A stretch of DNA of 41,430 bases from a virus. Made by a program: the position numbers and the translations under genes. This document shows positions 947-34,294 of the stretch, one piece after another. The notes below the pieces were generated by a model. The model saw only the letters and a program-made list of their open reading frames with translations. It was not told the DNA's origin and ran no database searches. The stretch spans positions 1 to 41,430 of IMG/VR virus record IMGVR_UViG_3300024518_005412. One strand, written 5' to 3'. The stretch's first letter is position 1. Each line of letters opens with the position of its first letter.

Positions 947-1474
947 ATGGCAATGACCAAAGGAACGGTAACGATTGATGGAGACGGGGTTCCTTCCGGC
1001 AGTGGTGCAGCCCGTGAAATGTTTGACGCCTACGATGCAACATTGGTGCAACAGCTTTTCACTGGTACACACACGGGTGCGAATGGCGCGACGGTTCTAG
1101 AGGATACTGGCCAAAGTTTCACCGTCGATGAATTGGTGGGAAAATTTATCAGCAACACCACTGATGGCAGCCTTGGGAATGCTACCGAGAACACATCCAC
1201 AACCGTCAACGTGGTTTTGGCTAGCGGGACCAATAACTTTTGGAACAATGGGGATTCATATTCCGTCGATACGCTGGCAGGTGCAGCCATGGTAGCAACA
1301 CGGAATTCCACCGCTGACCTTTGTAATTCGATTGCCGAGATGATCACCCACATCACAGACAATGCCGACGTGACAATCAAGACAACTGATTCAGCTTTGC
1401 AGCGCGACCCATCCAGCACGGATGACACCTTGGGCCCTGATTCAAACAAAACCCTATCGGGAGCCGTTAGCTGA
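947..1474 (+). CDS. Virion-associated protein with one shared beta module
   Basis: A 175-residue protein following the spike after 11 bases. Residues about 40-107 form a module that recurs in the proteins at 6898-7596 and 10018-11511: a DTGQSF-type strand, then LVG, TDGS, an N-T-S/A-T-T-V turn, GGT/SGT and a closing W...D.Y strand. The C-terminal part (110-175) is a separate, mostly polar region. The module looks like a small beta-sandwich used as a building block in tail or fibre proteins. Exact function is unknown; attachment to the spike or baseplate is inferred from position only. Confidence 0.6.
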   Translation: MAMTKGTVTIDGDGVPSGSGAAREMFDAYDATLVQQLFTGTHTGANGATVLEDTGQSFTVDELVGKFISNTTDGSLGNATENTSTTVNVVLASGTNNFWNNGDSYSVDTLAGAAMVATRNSTADLCNSIAEMITHITDNADVTIKTTDSALQRDPSSTDDTLGPDSNKTLSGAVS

Positions 1475-1785
1475 TGACCAATTGTGCATTTAATTTGCTT
1501 CCGCCGGTCCCGACAATTCCCCTTCCGCCCCTTCCTTTGCCTGTGTTTCTACCGGGCGTTCCAAGCATTAGCATTCCGCTCCCGGGGATTTCTCTCAACC
1601 CCCCGATCCCGACCATCCCCCTTCCACCTCTTCCCTTACCGGTATTCTTGCCGGGTGTTCCGTCAATCAGCATCCCCCTTCCTGGTTTGGTTTTGCTCCC
1701 GCCAATTCCGACCATCCCGATTCCGCCCCTTCCTTTACCTGTGTTTTTGCCAGGAATCCCTGCACCATTCTGTCCGCTCGATTAA
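1474..1785 (+). CDS. Proline-rich protein of three 33-residue repeats, possible spike tip
   Basis: A 103-residue protein, nearly all Pro, Leu, Ile and Val. It is built from almost three tandem 33-residue repeats beginning PP[VI]PTIP and containing LPLPVFLPG and, in the first two copies, PSISIPLPG. A Cys lies near each end (residue 4 in MTNCAF; another in PFCPLD). The ATG overlaps the stop of the preceding gene. The encoding DNA also repeats with a 99-base period. A three-fold internal repeat next to a gene for a trimeric spike suggests a pseudo-threefold cap comparable in role to PAAR tips, but it has no PAAR motif and this is inference. A purely structural polyproline filler is the alternative. 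The other frames here are also open because of the repeats but look non-coding. Confidence 0.6.
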   Translation: MTNCAFNLLPPVPTIPLPPLPLPVFLPGVPSISIPLPGISLNPPIPTIPLPPLPLPVFLPGVPSISIPLPGLVLLPPIPTIPIPPLPLPVFLPGIPAPFCPLD

Positions 1786-1800
1786 AAAATAAATCTGCGT

Positions 1801-1825
1801 TTTTTGAGACCCGCCGTTATAGGTA
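1801..1825 (+). promoter_or_regulatory. Putative promoter of the cargo operon (T6-N10-GTTAT type)
   Basis: TTTTTT at 1801-1806, ten bases, then GTTATAGGT at 1817-1825. The same spacing occurs upstream of genes at 22581, 32757 and 38899. It would drive 1901 onward through an ~75-base leader that contains a small GGCC...GGCC inverted repeat near 1855-1868. Confidence 0.45.
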
Positions 1826-1900
1826 GGTATAGGCGATTCGCAAACATGCCATGGCCAATGTCGGCCTAAGAGCACACAGCAATTGCCAGGGAGACGAGTC

Positions 1901-2464
1901 ATGATTGAGAAAGCAACGTACAAACTGGTAGGTCAGACACCCTTGTTGATGCACGCAGCGAACGCGTTGAATCCGTTCAACGAGTATCACAAGGCGATGA
2001 AGAAAATCACAGGCATCCGAAAGAAGCAGGAGGAAGACCATCTCAAACTCATGGAGTTGGAATTCCTTTCGGGCCTCTACCTGGATGACAAAAACAGGCC
2101 CATCATTCCTGGAAATGTTTTGATGGGCGGGATCAAGTCGGCCGCAAAAAAGTTCAGGCAGGGCAGGCAGGCAGATGAAGGTTTGTGGGTTGAGAATGAC
2201 GCTGTTCTCAAATTCGACGGTCCCAAGGATCTCCAGAAGAGATTCGACAAGGCTCAGTATCTGTACACGAAGGTGGTTTTGAGCGGGAAGTCTATTATGA
2301 GAACACGTCCCAAATTCTCAGGTTGGTCCGCCGAAATCGAGGTTTGTTTTCAAACGGACCTCATCAATCGCGAAGATGTAGACAAATGGATCAAGCGTCT
2401 CGAAACCATGGGCATCATGGATTACCGGCCCCAGTATGGCCGTTTCACTTCTGAGGCAGCGTAA
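1901..2464 (+). CDS. Cas7/RAMP-like protein (candidate RNA-binding subunit)
   Basis: A 187-residue protein. Three segments match, in order, the hallmarks of RAMP-fold proteins such as Cas7, Csm3 and Cmr4: a first strand ending TPLLMH (13-18); PIIPGNVLMGGIKSA (67-81), like the IPGSSLKGALR helix; and ETMGIMDYRPQYGRF (168-182), like the glycine-rich LGGxRSRGYGRV loop. Between them lies a Lys-rich helix (about 31-53). No catalytic Asp typical of Csm3 can be assigned. ATG 1901 is preferred over an upstream TTG (1883) because GGGAGA lies at the right distance. Its stop overlaps the next ATG (TAATG). The non-coding array starts 464 bases downstream. Family assignment is my motif reading and needs a profile search. 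Proteins of this look occur in other phages as conserved hypotheticals. Confidence 0.55.
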   Translation: MIEKATYKLVGQTPLLMHAANALNPFNEYHKAMKKITGIRKKQEEDHLKLMELEFLSGLYLDDKNRPIIPGNVLMGGIKSAAKKFRQGRQADEGLWVENDAVLKFDGPKDLQKRFDKAQYLYTKVVLSGKSIMRTRPKFSGWSAEIEVCFQTDLINREDVDKWIKRLETMGIMDYRPQYGRFTSEAA

Positions 2465-2922
2465 TGTCTTTGGCGATTGAAGGGGAATTGACCATCGACG
2501 TTAGGAGTCTCAACAAGGGAGACTTTCTGGACCCTGATACGATAGAAAAAGTTGTGGGGCACAAGGCCGATACCCCTCAATATGGGCTTAGTTGTATGGG
2601 CCTAAAAGTATCAATCGAGAGAGATTCCATAGGCATCGGTACTCCATTTATCGTCAAGCATGAAAAGGCTGGGTTGAGAATACTAACCGATGATGAAGCT
2701 GTTGATTATTTGGAGGGCCGTCACAATTCACACGTGATGGGAATAAAACGTGTGTATGCAAAGTTGAACCGCGTAGATGTTGGAAAGCTGACAGGCGAGC
2801 AAGAGAAAGCGTATGAGAGACGAATGCTCATACAGGGAAGGACAGTCCAGGCGATTGACAACGCATATCGGGGATTGGAATTTCCTGTTGTGGAAGAAAC
2901 CAACGGATTATTGGAGGATTAG
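2464..2922 (+). CDS. Unknown protein coupled to the RAMP-like gene
   Basis: A 152-residue protein whose ATG overlaps the stop of the RAMP-like gene, so both are made from one message. It begins with a strand-rich segment (IEGELTIDVRSL), has a Gly-rich middle (DSIGIGTPFIV, about residues 54-64) and a charged helical C-terminal part (about 105-135, rich in Arg, Glu and Lys). I recognise no family. It ends only six bases before the first hairpin of the array, so a role in making, binding or using that RNA is plausible but unproven. Confidence 0.65.
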   Translation: MSLAIEGELTIDVRSLNKGDFLDPDTIEKVVGHKADTPQYGLSCMGLKVSIERDSIGIGTPFIVKHEKAGLRILTDDEAVDYLEGRHNSHVMGIKRVYAKLNRVDVGKLTGEQEKAYERRMLIQGRTVQAIDNAYRGLEFPVVEETNGLLED

Positions 2923-2927
2923 AAATA

Positions 2928-3065
2928 GCCCCATGGTGAGATCGCTTCAATCCATGGGGCCCGTTCGGTTGAGGCAGGGTTGGGCTCGGAAAGGCCCGGT
3001 TTGGCAGGGCAGTGAGCGGTAGGGTCTGGCAGTGAACGGTGTGGCGAGGTCGGGCAATAAACCGT
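2928..3065 (+). repeat. Array unit 1
   Basis: Hairpin 2928-2960: stem GCCCCATGG / CCATGGGGC, loop 2937-2951 (TGAGATCGCTTCAAT). The tract has GG in phase from 2973 to 3054: 17 pentamers, 15 with GG, and TG at 3013 and 3033. It is the longest tract of the six. The triplets between GG pairs vary freely (CTC, AAA, CCC, TTT, CAG, AGC and others). Confidence 0.85.
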
Positions 3066-3162
3066 CCATCGCGGAGATCGCTTCAAAGCGGTGGGTCTAT
3101 TTGAGGTGCGGCACGGCACCGCGTGGTACGGAGCGGCATGGACTGGAACGGCGGGGCAACTT
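3066..3162 (+). repeat. Array unit 2
   Basis: Hairpin 3066-3094: CCATCGC / GCGGTGG with one G-T pair, loop 3073-3087 (GGAGATCGCTTCAAA). The tract has 11 pentamers from 3105 to 3156, 10 with GG and one CG at 3120. Confidence 0.8.
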
Positions 3163-3262
3163 TTCCACGAAGAGATAACTTCAAATCGTGGGATCCATTT
3201 TGGGGCCCGGTTCGGCAAGGATGGGCATGGTGGTGAAAGGTGGGGTCGGGTAAGGCAAGGAA
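3163..3262 (+). repeat. Array unit 3
   Basis: Hairpin 3163-3193: core CCACGA / TCGTGG, extended by G-T and T-A pairs, loop 3171-3185 (AGAGATAACTTCAAA). The tract has 12 pentamers from 3204 to 3260, 11 with GG and TG at 3234. Confidence 0.8.
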
Positions 3263-3346
3263 CCTCGCGAGGAGATCACGTTCAAATCGTGAGGTATACT
3301 CTCCTCGTGGCTTGGTTCGGCTAGGTAGGGAGAGACAGGGCAGGCA
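3263..3346 (+). repeat. Array unit 4
   Basis: Hairpin 3263-3294: CCTCGCGA / TCGTGAGG, loop 3271-3286 (GGAGATCACGTTCAAA, one base longer). The tract is the shortest: 7 in-phase pentamers from 3309 to 3340, then a one-base phase slip (GG at 3343-3344) just before the next stem. Confidence 0.8.
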
Positions 3347-3455
3347 TCCCCAGTGGCGATCACGTTCAAAACTGGGGAACTGTTTGGGGCTAGGTAAGTC
3401 ATGGAAAGGACGGGCGAGGAGCGGCTAGGAACGGTCGGGAGGGGTAAGGCAACCA
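3347..3455 (+). repeat. Array unit 5
   Basis: Hairpin 3347-3378: perfect TCCCCAGT / ACTGGGGA, loop 3355-3370 (GGCGATCACGTTCAAA). The tract has 13 pentamers from 3388 to 3449, 12 with GG and GT at 3398. Confidence 0.8.
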
Positions 3456-3565
3456 TTCCATGGTGAGATCGTTTCAATCCATGGGATCTAGTTATGGCGG
3501 GGAGTAGTGTGGAGGGCAGAGGAGCGGAACGGCAAGGTTAGGCAGGGGCCCACACGGGCATGTGG
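3456..3565 (+). repeat. Array unit 6 and terminal hairpin
   Basis: Hairpin 3456-3486: TTCCATGG / CCATGGGA with one G-T pair, loop 3464-3478 (TGAGATCGTTTCAAT), closest to unit 1. The tract has 11 pentamers from 3496 to 3547, 9 with GG, then a small stem CCACA / TGTGG at 3550-3565 that closes the array. Confidence 0.8.
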
Positions 3566-3620
3566 TATGATGACGGAAAGGGAATAAAGACAAATGAAAA
3601 CCGACAAACCATCCCCCTTT

Positions 3621-3629
3621 GTTATATTT
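3621..3629 (+). promoter_or_regulatory. Putative extended -10 promoter (GTTATATTT)
   Basis: TTTGTTATATTT fits an extended -10 element (TGT-TATATT) 18 bases before ATG 3647. No good -35 is visible. The A-tract spacing seen at related sites is imperfect here. Confidence 0.35.
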
Positions 3630-3646
3630 GGTTTGAGGTGTTGAAA

Positions 3647-3949
3647 ATGGCTAGTGTGTTTCAAGCGAGGATGGCCCTAAAAATATTAGCCCGTAATCTG
3701 ACCCATGTGGAATGGGAACGGCATGATGACCGGGTGGTTTGTCGGGTTACGTTCAATGATAGAAAGCACTGGTTGTCTGCAATGCTTGGGATTACGAAAC
3801 ATCAGATTCCAGTTTGTTATCAGGGGATGGCAACGATTGAGCAAAAAGAAGCTCATAGCATTTCAATCATCATGGATGTTGCTGAGATGGTAGACGACCC
3901 AATTTTGTGCCCGCTGATTCCGTCTGAGAACAAGGGTGGCAAACAGTGA
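3647..3949 (+). CDS. Small unknown protein downstream of the array
   Basis: A 100-residue protein starting MASVFQARMAL. ATG 3647 has GAGGTG at a good distance. An in-frame ATG at 3560 lies inside the array's terminal hairpin and is less likely. The N-terminal half is basic with a helix-strand look (ARNLTHVEWERHDDRVVCRV), the C-terminal half mixed. No family recognised. Its stop overlaps the GTG of the lipoprotein gene. Position right after the array makes it a third candidate component of that system. Confidence 0.6.
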   Translation: MASVFQARMALKILARNLTHVEWERHDDRVVCRVTFNDRKHWLSAMLGITKHQIPVCYQGMATIEQKEAHSISIIMDVAEMVDDPILCPLIPSENKGGKQ

Positions 3950-4791
3950 GGTGTTTTGTCCCATTGCTGGCCTGCCTTGTCGCTGCATGTGGGGCAGAAG
4001 TTGAACCCAACTTTGTCTATGGTGGGGATGATGACCCCAGCCCGGATGGTGGTAAACGTAGGGGCAAGATTGATGACGATACTGGTTCAGGCGATATTGA
4101 TACAGAATCAGACAGTCAGGTGGACACTGGCAAAGGGTGGGATACAGACACACACCAGATTGATACCGGTTCAGATGAACCAGACAGTGATACCCAGATA
4201 GATTATCAGGACAGTGAGACAGCATCTGGCCCGGATACTGCCACAGACCAAGACACTGAGATGTTCGACACAGACACAGGCTCAGACATCGATACAGGCC
4301 CCCCTGTGGATGATGGTTGTGAACCACCTATTGAGGATGGTTTGAATCTGAGTTGTTCTGATGTCTGCCACCCTCAATGGCCCGTTGCCCAATATGGTGC
4401 CGATGCCCTTTGCAGCACTTTGACTGATTTTAAATGTAGCTACAACACCATGTATCTTGCTGACAATATGAAGATGAATCTCCTTTTGCCTTCAACGGAT
4501 TCAGACCAATCCCAGAATTGTGACTGCCATGATGGTGGGATTATCAAACAGCGGTGGCAATCAACCTTGTCCCCTGGCCATTGCTACAAGGTCGAAACAT
4601 CAGGCAGCCGGAAGGCTACAACCATCGGTGATAGTTGCTCAGAAGACATCGAAGATTTGCCCAATTGCACCATAATCAAGGCATGGGGCAACACAGTACT
4701 GACCATCCTAGCAGGTGAATCAGAGCCCTATGGATGGGTGAAAATCAGCCCTGCTGACCTCGACGGTGAAGCCTGCCCCCTATCGTGTTGA
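3946..4791 (+). CDS. Secreted lipoprotein with Asp/Thr-rich stalk and Cys-rich C-terminal domain
   Basis: A 281-residue protein starting at GTG 3946, overlapping the previous stop. Residues 1-15 form a lipoprotein signal ending LVAAC, with Cys15 as the probable lipidated residue. About 40-120 is a disordered stalk of DTD, DTG and DSD repeats. About 125-281 is a compact domain with many Cys residues, likely disulfide-bonded outside the cytoplasm. Such stalks are common in lipoproteins of Myxococcota and relatives, so the gene may come from the host. In phages, lipoproteins often block superinfection at the cell surface; that role is inferred here. It ends the cargo segment before the baseplate genes resume. 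Confidence 0.7.
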   Translation: MRCFVPLLACLVAACGAEVEPNFVYGGDDDPSPDGGKRRGKIDDDTGSGDIDTESDSQVDTGKGWDTDTHQIDTGSDEPDSDTQIDYQDSETASGPDTATDQDTEMFDTDTGSDIDTGPPVDDGCEPPIEDGLNLSCSDVCHPQWPVAQYGADALCSTLTDFKCSYNTMYLADNMKMNLLLPSTDSDQSQNCDCHDGGIIKQRWQSTLSPGHCYKVETSGSRKATTIGDSCSEDIEDLPNCTIIKAWGNTVLTILAGESEPYGWVKISPADLDGEACPLSC

Positions 4792-30870: not shown

Positions 30871-30961
30871 AAACCACATCGATTGGTGTTAGGCCGTTGT
30901 GTGAGCGTTTGGCCGTGGGTTGGTTCCCTCAACCCCCTTTTCCAATCCATGGTCAACCCCA

Positions 30962-31021
30962 GCCCCCTGGTTTTCAAGCAGCGCACCCCCTTTCGCGTTG
31001 CCCCCGTGAAAGCCAGGGGGC
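30962..31021 (+). promoter_or_regulatory. Second large hairpin in the dnaB leader
   Basis: GCCCCCTGGTTTTCA (30962-30976) pairs over 15 bp (one G-T) with TGAAAGCCAGGGGGC (31007-31021); an inner GCAGCG/CGTTGC stem is possible. It ends 26 bases before ATG 31047 and could control dnaB expression. TCTTTCCCCTTTC follows, a poor terminator tail. Confidence 0.5.
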
Positions 31022-31046
31022 GTCTTTCCCCTTTCACCAGCCTCTA

Positions 31047-32438
31047 ATGCACGCACAAGAGCCCAGAACGCCCCCTTACAGCCCAGAAGCGGAAAAAGCC
31101 ACACTGGGGGCTGTCTTTGTGGATAACGCCGTTCTAGGGGCCTTGTTGGACCTCTTAGAGCCTATGGACTTTTACGTCACTGCACACAGGCTGATGTTTG
31201 AATCCATGGTCAGAGTCTCATCACAAGGGCTGCCAACTGACCCAGTAACCGTTGGAAATGACCTCAAAGATAACGGCAATCTTGAAAAAGCCGGTGGTGT
31301 CATGGCCATCTCAGAATTGATGGATGCAGTGGCAGTGACTGCAAACGTTGAGCATTATGCTGCAATCGTGCGAGAAAAGGCTGCAATCAGGCGAGTAATA
31401 TCAACCAGCCAATCCCTGGCAGCCGAGGGTCTAGCTGGGGTTGATGATGTTACAGATTATTTGGATGCAGCAGAACGGGCGATCCATGATGCCACCAACA
31501 CCAAGCAATCAACGGATTATGTCAGCTTTGCACAATCTGCCCCCGATGTATTCAAGTCTGTAGAACAGGCCTGCCAACGTGGGGATAGGATGTCTGGCCA
31601 CACTTCTGGATTTGATGAAATCGACAAGATGACAAACGGATTCAGAAAAGGGGAACTGATTATCGTTGCTGGCCGTCCTGCCATGGGCAAAACCACCCTT
31701 GGGGTCAACATTGCAACTAATCTCACTCAGCAGACAGGGAAAGCATCCATTGTTTTCAGTCTGGAAATGGGACGTGAAGAGCTAGTTAAAAGGGTCATGT
31801 GCTCTGAGGGGGGAATAAACGCCCAAAACATGAGATCAAATAATCTCAGCCCAGACGACATGAGAAAAATGGTCAAAGTCACAGCAGAAGTCTCACAACA
31901 CCCAATATACTTTTTCGATAAATCCCCAATGACCCCATATGACATCCGCTCAAAATCTCGAAGATTGGCCAAGGATCATGATTTGGGGGTGATTGTGGTG
32001 GATTATCTCCAACTGATGAGTAGCAGGCAAACCAAGGGTGGGGGGCGTCAAATCAGCAACCGTGAACAAGAGATTGCAGACATTTCCCGTTCAATGAAAT
32101 CCCTGGCCAAAGAGTTAGAAGTCCCAGTCATTGCCCTATCTCAACTCAATCGGGGCCTCGAAAGCAGACCCGACAAACGCCCCAAGATGTCAGATTTGAG
32201 AGAATCAGGGGCAATTGAACAAGATGCTGACCTAATCATGTTTGTGTATCGTGATGAGGTATACCATCCAGACACTGACAGTGAAGGGATTGCAGAAATC
32301 ATCATTGCAAAACAGCGCTCTGGCCCCATTGGGACGGTCAAACTCAAATTTTGGGGTCAATACAACCGGTTTGATAATCTGGCAGAGCAACCAAGCCAGC
32401 CGAATTACCCCCCGGAAAATCCAAGGGATGGATACTAG
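31047..32438 (+). CDS. dnaB: DnaB-type replicative helicase
   Basis: A 463-residue helicase. N-terminal DnaB domain about 10-115 (SPEAEKATLGAVFVDN, FYVTAHRLMFESM). RecA-like core: Walker A GRPAMGKTT at 209-217, FSLEMGREEL, Walker B VIVVDYLQLM at 315-324, LSQLNRGLE and LRESGAIEQDADLIMFVYR near the end with the arginine finger region. It unwinds DNA at the phage fork and would be loaded by the 27019 product. ATG 31047 gives the family's usual N-terminus; the upstream in-frame Pro-rich extension is leader sequence with hairpins. Confidence 0.92.
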   Translation: MHAQEPRTPPYSPEAEKATLGAVFVDNAVLGALLDLLEPMDFYVTAHRLMFESMVRVSSQGLPTDPVTVGNDLKDNGNLEKAGGVMAISELMDAVAVTANVEHYAAIVREKAAIRRVISTSQSLAAEGLAGVDDVTDYLDAAERAIHDATNTKQSTDYVSFAQSAPDVFKSVEQACQRGDRMSGHTSGFDEIDKMTNGFRKGELIIVAGRPAMGKTTLGVNIATNLTQQTGKASIVFSLEMGREELVKRVMCSEGGINAQNMRSNNLSPDDMRKMVKVTAEVSQHPIYFFDKSPMTPYDIRSKSRRLAKDHDLGVIVVDYLQLMSSRQTKGGGRQISNREQEIADISRSMKSLAKELEVPVIALSQLNRGLESRPDKRPKMSDLRESGAIEQDADLIMFVYRDEVYHPDTDSEGIAEIIIAKQRSGPIGTVKLKFWGQYNRFDNLAEQPSQPNYPPENPRDGY

Positions 32439-33613: not shown

Positions 33614-34294
33614 ATGTCAAAAATCATCGGGTATATCAGGGTCAGCACTTCAAAACAGGCAGATGAGGGCCACAGCCTGGATGCACAAAGAGCGAAGTTG
33701 CAAGCCTATGCAAATCTGTATGAACTAGATCTGGTGGGAATCCACGTGGATGCTGGGTTGTCTGGCAAATCCCTAGATAGGCCAGCGTTACAGCAGGCCC
33801 TGGCAGACCTCAAATCAGGCAAAGCAACCGGGTTACTCACCATGAAGTTGGATCGGCTGAGTCGTTCAGTGGCCGATATGGGGCGTCTGATGGCGGAATA
33901 TTTCAACCCCCGGTCTGGATACCAGCTGATTGCAGTGAATGATTCCATCGATACCAGCACGGCATCAGGCCGGTTGGTGGTCAACATCCTGGCATCGGTG
34001 GCCCAATGGGAACGGGAAGCCACGGGTGAACGCGTAAGCTCAACCATGGCCCATATGAGGGAATCAGGCCAGTACACAGGTGGACAGCCCAGATACGGTT
34101 ACAAGGTCTCCAAGGATGGCAGCCAGTTGGAAAAGCACGAAGCTGAGCAAAGGGTTATTCGTTCCGCCCAAGCAATGCATTTGGAAGGCAGAACGCTATC
34201 CAGTATTGCAAAGGCTCTGAATGTCACCAAGTTCAGAACACGTGGGGGTGGGCTGTTTCAAGTCAATCAAATCAAGGGGATGCTGGCGCAATAA
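33614..34294 (+). CDS. Serine recombinase / resolvase
   Basis: A 226-residue protein with GAAAGGGG seven bases before ATG 33614. Catalytic domain about 1-140: Ser11 in GYIRVSTSKQ, GLSGKSLDRPAL, LDRLSRSVADM and ASVAQWEREATGERV. The C-terminal part has a GGQPRYGYKV recombinase segment and a short HTH (TLSSIAKALNV). Length is that of resolvases/invertases or short integrases, not large integrases. It may integrate the phage, resolve dimers, or invert a segment. A perfect parS lies seven bases after its stop, favouring a plasmid-like maintenance role. Confidence 0.85.
   Translation: MSKIIGYIRVSTSKQADEGHSLDAQRAKLQAYANLYELDLVGIHVDAGLSGKSLDRPALQQALADLKSGKATGLLTMKLDRLSRSVADMGRLMAEYFNPRSGYQLIAVNDSIDTSTASGRLVVNILASVAQWEREATGERVSSTMAHMRESGQYTGGQPRYGYKVSKDGSQLEKHEAEQRVIRSAQAMHLEGRTLSSIAKALNVTKFRTRGGGLFQVNQIKGMLAQ

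What the first reader, a model, noticed from the sequence alone, without database searches (positions are those of the whole stretch)
2960..3549. Non-coding tracts with strict five-base HNNGG periodicity
Between the six hairpins, GG recurs every five bases with the phase held through whole tracts (17, 11, 12, 7, 13 and 11 pentamers). By hand count 63 of 71 in-phase positions are GG, the other eight keep one G, and G never occurs at position 1. The other bases vary freely. Five-base periodicity excludes coding and simple repeats cannot explain the varied triplets. Established precedents for such periods are TRAP (NAG triplets every five bases around an 11-subunit ring) and Cas7 filaments (six-base steps). 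The usual tract length of 11-13 pentamers fits one turn of a ring or a filament of that many subunits. That a protein reads this RNA is inference.
Basis: partly seen in the sequence, partly recalled or inferred. Interest (0 to 1): 0.95.

Follow-up and report, generated by a model that had tools for sequence, protein, structure and literature searches.

The report
Phage VIPR guide-RNA array with hairpins
The strange five-base pattern is the guide-RNA array of a VIPR system, a recently described phage weapon in which a CRISPR-like protein reads two letters in every five of an RNA to find enemy DNA; this copy is a divergent one, and its guides are separated by hairpins of an unusual kind.

Summary
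The reading "RNA tracts bound by a Cas7-like filament" was close. The 1901-2464 product is a homolog of the SUSP1 Vipr protein (PDB 36pp, E 2.9e-19), and its model matches Csm3/Cas7 structures. It belongs to VIPR (Viral Interference Programmable Repeat; PMC13142463, 2026): a RAMP protein, a vap gene and vrRNAs of YNNGG repeats, whose NN pairs read DNA with one skipped base. The tract lengths are guide lengths, not turns of a ring. The window holds vipr, vap (2464-2922) and six vrRNAs. It is divergent (at most 41% identity to any Vipr found), uses HNNGG, and separates its guides by 8-bp hairpins with a nearly invariant loop (48/48 pairs formed, six of eight covary), found nowhere else searched. 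Several relatives, including the nearest, carry tRNA-like minihelices there, which the preprint's main text does not mention. No target of the window's guides was found. In 196 related guides, matches favour the one-base-skip rule.

The parts
1901..2464 (+). vipr gene: 187-aa RAMP (Cas7-like) protein expected to coat the vrRNA
   Evidence: phmmer to PDB 36pp_D 'SUSP1 Vipr protein' E 2.9e-19 over residues 7-185; AlphaFold model pLDDT 94.9; Foldseek to Csm3/Cas7 chains E about 1e-6; PHROG 4652 of unknown function E 1.3e-39
2464..2922 (+). vap gene: 152-aa accessory protein, overlapping the vipr stop codon
   Evidence: homologs beside vipr in 11 other VIPR loci; profile-profile match to the gene next to vipr in SUSP1-like, Pseudomonas and actinobacterial phages, probability 93.5%, E 2.3e-7
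2929..2959 (+). hairpin 1, before guide tract 1
   Evidence: 8-bp stem, loop TGAGATCGCTTCAAT; covariation over the six hairpins
2970..3054 (+). vrRNA 1 guide tract, 17 pentamers; NN code GA AG TG TC AA CC TT AG AG GC AG CT AG AC GT GA CG
3065..3095 (+). hairpin 2
   Evidence: also contains a possible T-arm atcgc-TTCAAA-gcggt
3102..3156 (+). vrRNA 2 guide tract, 11 pentamers; NN code GA GC AC AC GT AC GC AT CT AC GG
3163..3193 (+). hairpin 3
3201..3260 (+). vrRNA 3 guide tract, 12 pentamers; NN code GG CC TC AA TG AT GG AA GG CG AA AA
3263..3294 (+). hairpin 4
   Evidence: also contains a possible T-arm tcacg-TTCAAAT-cgtga
3306..3340 (+). vrRNA 4 guide tract, 7 pentamers; the shortest, possibly degenerate
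3347..3378 (+). hairpin 5
3385..3449 (+). vrRNA 5 guide tract, 13 pentamers; NN code GG TA AA AT AA CG GA GC TA AC CG GG AA
3456..3486 (+). hairpin 6
3493..3547 (+). vrRNA 6 guide tract, 11 pentamers; NN code AT GG GT GT GG GA GC AC AA TA AG
3548..3559 (+). possible 3' tail hairpin of the last vrRNA, GCCC-ACAC-GGGC
   Evidence: RNA fold; resembles by eye the short hairpins after the tracts in L091 (GCTCC-ACG-GGAGC, GCCAC-ACG-GTGGC; sequence); weak evidence

Best explanation
The locus is a VIPR system of a tailed phage. The region 2929-3559 is transcribed as an array of six guide RNAs (vrRNAs). Vipr subunits bind each tract, one per five bases, and hold the conserved GG plus the following base away from pairing. 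The two variable bases of each pentamer pair with target DNA at every first and second of three positions (NNx), so each tract of n pentamers specifies 2n bases over 3n bases of DNA. The bound complex represses the genes of a competing phage or satellite; the vap protein helps. The hairpins separate the guides: they are most likely the processing signals or handles by which single vrRNAs are released and capped. Shown here: the homology of Vipr and vap, the fold, the tracts, the covarying hairpins, and the preference of related guides for the one-base-skip rule. Taken from the preprint for SUSP1 and P. fulva VIPR: RNA binding, DNA recognition, repression, the role of vap. Inferred for the window: transcription, the target, and the role of the hairpins.
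For: Vipr homology to PDB 36pp and RAMP fold. vap homologs beside vipr. Period-5 tracts on the sense strand directly beside nearly all Vipr homologs examined, from phages, IMG/VR and genomes, and in loci without GG a period of five with another fixed triplet: GCA, GTC, AGC. In 196 guides tested against the other VIPR loci, 11 had a match at E<0.05 under the one-base skip, against 1, 0, 2, 0 and 0 for skips of 0, 2, 4, 5 and 6; the best is 28 of 32 positions in a phage tape-measure gene, with the skipped base at the codon third position. VIPR described in PMC13142463.
Against: No DNA target was found for five guides scanned in IMG/VR; all matches were of chance quality. Position 1 is A in 27% of pentamers, whereas the published consensus is a pyrimidine. 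Tract 4 has only 7 pentamers, below the published 9-16. No separate 3' tail like that of SUSP1 was recognised for guides 1-5. The skip-rule matches include near-duplicate guides and two matches inside the guide's own locus.
Confidence: 0.93

Rival explanations
1. A TRAP-like regulatory leader: a ring protein wraps the RNA at fixed steps and controls expression of the neighbouring genes, with no guide function.
For: Fixed five-base step and tracts of 11-13 units.
Against: The neighbouring protein is a RAMP with Csm3/Cas7 fold. The fixed bases are GG, not NAG. Six tracts of different length and content would be redundant in a leader. Related tracts find matches in other phages under the skip rule.
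Confidence: 0.02
2. A G-quadruplex array: GG-N3-GG-N3 is a two-tier quadruplex motif, and the tracts act through RNA or DNA structure.
For: Every tract fits (GG N3)n.
Against: Relatives keep the five-base step with GCA, GTC or AGC in place of GG, which cannot form quadruplexes; the tracts sit beside Vipr homologs only.
Confidence: 0.01
3. VIPR system as in the best explanation, but this array is decayed or inactive in this phage (vrRNA 4 short, eight imperfect GG, consensus relaxed).
For: 8 of 71 GG positions imperfect; tract 4 has 7 pentamers; no targets found.
Against: Both protein genes are intact; the hairpin stems are fully paired with compensatory changes, which points to selection; GG and position-1 purity are similar to relatives.
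Confidence: 0.1
4. A CRISPR array with unusual spacers.
For: Repeated hairpins with a conserved loop between variable segments, next to a RAMP gene.
Against: Stems differ between units, the spacers are five-periodic, no cas1, cas2 or other cas gene was recognised among the proteins examined.
Confidence: 0.01

Closest known systems
VIPR (Viral Interference Programmable Repeat), type II of Escherichia phage SUSP1 and Pseudomonas fulva prophage (PMC13142463; PDB 36pp)
   Same: Vipr homolog over its whole length, an overlapping vap gene that is a remote relative of SUSP1's, arrayed vrRNAs with NNGG pentamers, phage genome.
   Different: 28% identity to the Vipr of a SUSP1-like phage (L009) and at most 41% to any found; position 1 is H rather than Y; the guides are separated by variable-stem hairpins with a conserved loop instead of the SUSP1 tail with pseudoknot.
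VIPR arrays interspersed with hammerhead ribozymes (PMC13142463)
   Same: Guides separated by a structured RNA element.
   Different: No hammerhead or other Rfam family is found in the window array; the loop sequence is different.
Class 1 CRISPR Cas7/Csm3 backbone proteins
   Same: RAMP fold; a filament on guide RNA with periodic interruption of pairing (six-base step in Cas7).
   Different: Step of five, three of every five RNA bases not read, no identical repeats, no adaptation genes recognised.
TRAP (trp RNA-binding attenuation protein)
   Same: Protein-RNA contact at a fixed five-base step.
   Different: Different protein fold, NAG triplets, ring, regulation of one operon (from established knowledge).

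Membership tests
VIPR | Vipr protein: small RAMP homolog with RRM core | tested here: met
   phmmer to PDB 36pp_D E 2.9e-19; model pLDDT 94.9; Csm3/Cas7 Foldseek matches
VIPR | Minimal locus: vipr plus a vap gene | tested here: met
   2464-2922 overlaps the vipr stop; homologs beside vipr in 11 loci; profile match to SUSP1-type vap set, E 2.3e-7
VIPR | Adjacent vrRNAs made of tandem pentamers with a fixed trinucleotide and a hypervariable NN | tested here: met
   71 pentamers in six tracts
VIPR | Strict GGY (YNNGG) consensus and 9-16 repeats, or a related consensus | tested here: inconclusive
   Position 1 is C/T 73%, A 27%, G 0%; lengths 7-17. The preprint allows 'a related consensus'; other loci here use GGA, GCA, GTC or AGC
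VIPR | Structured 3' tail on each vrRNA | tested here: inconclusive
   A conserved hairpin lies 2-10 nt after tracts 1-5 and 6-11 nt before every tract, so it could be tail, leader or spacer
VIPR | NN pairs match a DNA target with a one-base skip | tested here: inconclusive
   No target of the window's guides found in IMG/VR; rule favoured in related guides
VIPR | vrRNAs expressed and bound by Vipr | not testable with these tools
   needs small-RNA sequencing and pull-down
VIPR, hammerhead-interspersed arrays | Hammerhead ribozymes between guides | tested here: not met
   no Rfam match at all in 1750-4000
TRAP-regulated leader | NAG triplets every five bases and a TRAP protein | tested here: not met
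   fixed bases are GG with any base before them; the partner is a RAMP
CRISPR array | Near-identical direct repeats | tested here: not met
   stems differ in all but one near-pair of the six units; only the loop is conserved

The most novel reading that the evidence does not exclude
Many VIPR arrays are cut by the host's own tRNA-processing enzymes. In several phage lineages the guides are separated by acceptor/T-arm minihelices (about 12 bp of stacked stem, TTCGANT loop, 10-11 nt in place of the rest of the tRNA) that RNase P and RNase Z could recognise, releasing the guides on both sides. The hairpins of the window, which keep TTCAA in the loop and in two cases a possible T-arm, are a shortened descendant of such elements.
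Probability: 0.35. Interest if true: 0.68.

Novelty: new variant of a known kind. Interest (0 to 1): 0.52.

Why it matters
VIPR was first described in 2026 and is proposed as a forerunner of CRISPR. This window is an independent example, spotted from sequence alone, in a phage whose Vipr is at most 41% identical to any found here. It extends the range of guide consensus (HNNGG) and of the elements that separate guides. The survey made to place it gives two testable points for the family: the five-base step is kept while the fixed triplet changes (GGY, GGA, GCA, GTC, AGC), and tRNA-like minihelices recur between guides in several lineages, which offers a simple route by which guide arrays could be processed without a dedicated enzyme.

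Tried and rejected
Targets of the window's guides: seeds of eight consecutive NN units from guides 1, 2, 3, 5 and 6 were scanned in IMG/VR; extended matches were at most 21/24, 21/24, 22/36, 18/28 and 20/22, in unrelated proteins, as chance would give. No self-target in the window. Scan for the conserved hairpin loop in IMG/VR: six matches, none near tracts, all chance. Close relatives of the Vipr with the single sequence: none. Rfam: nothing in the array, and the tRNA-like elements of relatives are not found as tRNA. Pfam, NCBIfam and PADLOC have no model of either protein. Fold search of vap: no convincing match. Hairpin as tRNA-like minihelix in all six: rejected, only hairpins 2 and 4 can form a T-arm and it competes with the covarying 8-bp stem. 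Coding explanation rejected by the step of five. Supplementary files of the preprint could not be read, so its types I-VII could not be assigned.

Full report
What was claimed and whether it is there. A recount gives exactly the stated numbers: 71 pentamers in tracts of 17, 11, 12, 7, 13 and 11; 63 GG; eight with one G; no G at position 1. GG pairs at distance 5 number 53 against 19.5 +/- 4.1 in 5000 dinucleotide-preserving shuffles (z 8.2), and the excess continues at 10, 15, 20 and 25. Nothing else in the window comes near this on either strand.

What it is. The product of 1901-2464 matches one solved structure by sequence: PDB 36pp, 'SUSP1 Vipr protein', E 2.9e-19 over residues 7-185. That led to PMC13142463, which describes VIPR: a phage-encoded RAMP protein (Vipr), an accessory gene (vap), and vrRNAs of 9-16 YNNGG repeats. 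In that work vrRNAs were seen in infected cells, co-purified with Vipr, and recognised double-stranded DNA through the NN pairs with one skipped base per unit; targeted genes were repressed. An AlphaFold model of the window protein, made from 75 sequences, has pLDDT 94.9, and its best structural matches are Csm3 and other Cas7 chains of type III and type VII CRISPR complexes, E about 1e-6.

The second gene, 2464-2922, overlaps the vipr stop codon. Homologs lie beside vipr in 11 other loci. Profile-profile comparison links it to the genes next to vipr in SUSP1-like, Pseudomonas and actinobacterial phages (probability 93.5%, E 2.3e-7). It is therefore a vap of the same broad family. No function can be read from its fold.

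Related loci. Homologs of Vipr were collected from annotated phages, IMG/VR and species genomes. Period-5 tracts lie next to nearly all of them, on the same strand as vipr. Over 3098 pentamers from relatives, G is found at 96.5% and 90.8% of the two fixed positions, and position 1 is C 59%, T 25%, A 14%, G 2%. In some loci the fixed triplet differs but the step of five stays: GGA in L018, L021, L054 and L101, GCA in phiHSIC and a Vibrio phage, GTC in L080, AGC in L103, a mixture of GGY and GTY in L011-L016 and L091. Periods 4 and 6 give nothing comparable. This speaks against G-quadruplex or TRAP explanations and for a reading frame of five in the protein filament.

The code. For 196 guides of nine or more units from these loci, the best match in the other VIPR loci was found for several skip lengths, with the tracts themselves masked. 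At E < 0.05 the one-base skip gave 11 matches; skips of 0, 2, 4, 5 and 6 gave 1, 0, 2, 0 and 0. Skip 3 was left out because each tract matches itself there. The best case is a guide of L075 matching 28 of 32 positions in the tape-measure gene of L035 (E 2e-6); a guide of L037 matches the same stretch of the tape-measure gene of L088; guides of L049, L063 and L068 match the same stretch of a tail-tip gene. In these the skipped base is the third base of the codon, as the preprint reports for SUSP1. The sample is small and includes near-duplicates and two matches within a guide's own locus, so this is support, not proof.

Targets of the window's guides. Five guides were decoded and scanned in IMG/VR with seeds of eight NN units. 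No match extended beyond chance. The rival element is probably not in the collection, or the guides have drifted. The host is unknown.

The hairpins. Each tract is preceded by a hairpin (2929-2959, 3065-3095, 3163-3193, 3263-3294, 3347-3378, 3456-3486), usually six bases from the tract on either side. The stems have eight pairs; all 48 are standard, six of the eight positions show changes on both sides, and the covariation score is 0.94 against 0.33 in shuffles. The loop is nearly fixed: N-GAGAT-(2-4)-TTCAA-A/T, with GCGAT in hairpin 5. Six copies within one array may share ancestry by duplication, but the compensatory changes show that pairing is kept. No Rfam family matches, so these are not the hammerhead elements of the preprint. 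A scan for the loop in IMG/VR found nothing related.

What relatives have at that place. In Gordonia phages Trine and MakoManhole, mycobacterial phages LittleE and prophiBWHA-1, L060, L091 (an Armatimonadetes contig) and, with an extra arm, L011-L017, the guides are separated or preceded by a tRNA-like minihelix: an acceptor stem of 5-8 pairs stacked directly on a T-stem of 5-7 pairs with TTCGANT-type loop, 10-11 bases in place of the rest of the tRNA (13-16 in L011-L017); the two stems together have 11-13 pairs, close to the 12 of a real tRNA. They occur on several branches of the Vipr tree, and L091 is the nearest row to the window (support 88/75, not strong). RNase P and RNase Z are known to act on such acceptor/T-arm helices (established knowledge), so the obvious reading is that host enzymes cut the array. 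The main text of the preprint does not contain the words tRNA or RNase; its supplement could not be read. The window's hairpins keep TTCAA, and hairpins 2 and 4 can form a T-arm instead of the long stem, but the covarying structure is the simple 8-bp stem. That they descend from tRNA-like elements is a guess.

Most likely mechanism. Vipr coats each vrRNA, the NN pairs scan DNA, and the bound complex blocks transcription of a competitor's genes, helped by vap. The hairpins most likely mark where the array is cut or cap the guides. The first sentence is established for two relatives and inferred here; the second is inferred.

Verdict. The finding is real and important as biology, but the kind of system is already described. 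What is new here is a divergent member with relaxed first position and a hairpin type not found elsewhere in the searches made, plus the observation of tRNA-like elements in relatives.

Noticed in passing
L004:3567-3607, L004:3688-3728, L006:2753-2794, L006:4209-4250, L007:1651-1691, L010:2876-2915, L060:3642-3684, L060:3766-3808, L091:203-241, L017:3666-3710, L011:3703-3748: tRNA-like acceptor/T-arm minihelices next to VIPR guide tracts in several phage lineages; possible RNase P / RNase Z processing sites.
   Followed up: partly
L075:4228 onwards (guide) and L035:5230 (target); L037:4080 and L088:5746; L063:4073 and L003:6253: Guides of Pseudomonas-type VIPR loci match tape-measure and tail-tip genes of related phages under the one-base-skip rule.
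   Followed up: partly
L005:3810, L008:3745, L080:4349, L103:5055: VIPR-type tracts whose fixed triplet is GCA, GTC or AGC instead of GGY, still with a step of five.
   Followed up: partly
L021:2763-2947, L021:3575-3739, L021:4669-4823: Guide tracts of 37, 33 and 31 pentamers, far longer than the published 9-16.
   Followed up: no
L023:3622-3996 and L082:3599-3752: Guide tracts separated by only four bases (ACTT, AAAT), so guides of these arrays have no room for a structured spacer.
   Followed up: no
window 1474-1785: ORF for a proline-rich repeat protein (repeated PIPLPPLPLPVFLPG-like units), no family match.
   Followed up: no
window 3946-4791: Secreted or lipoprotein-like ORF with a long acidic D/T-rich stretch and many cysteines; such stretches recall Myxococcota-type surface proteins, a weak hint at the host (from memory, not tested).
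   Followed up: no
window 33614-34294: Serine recombinase (Pfam Resolvase E 3.5e-36), which suggests a temperate phage; a DnaB-like helicase lies at 30897-32438.
   Followed up: no
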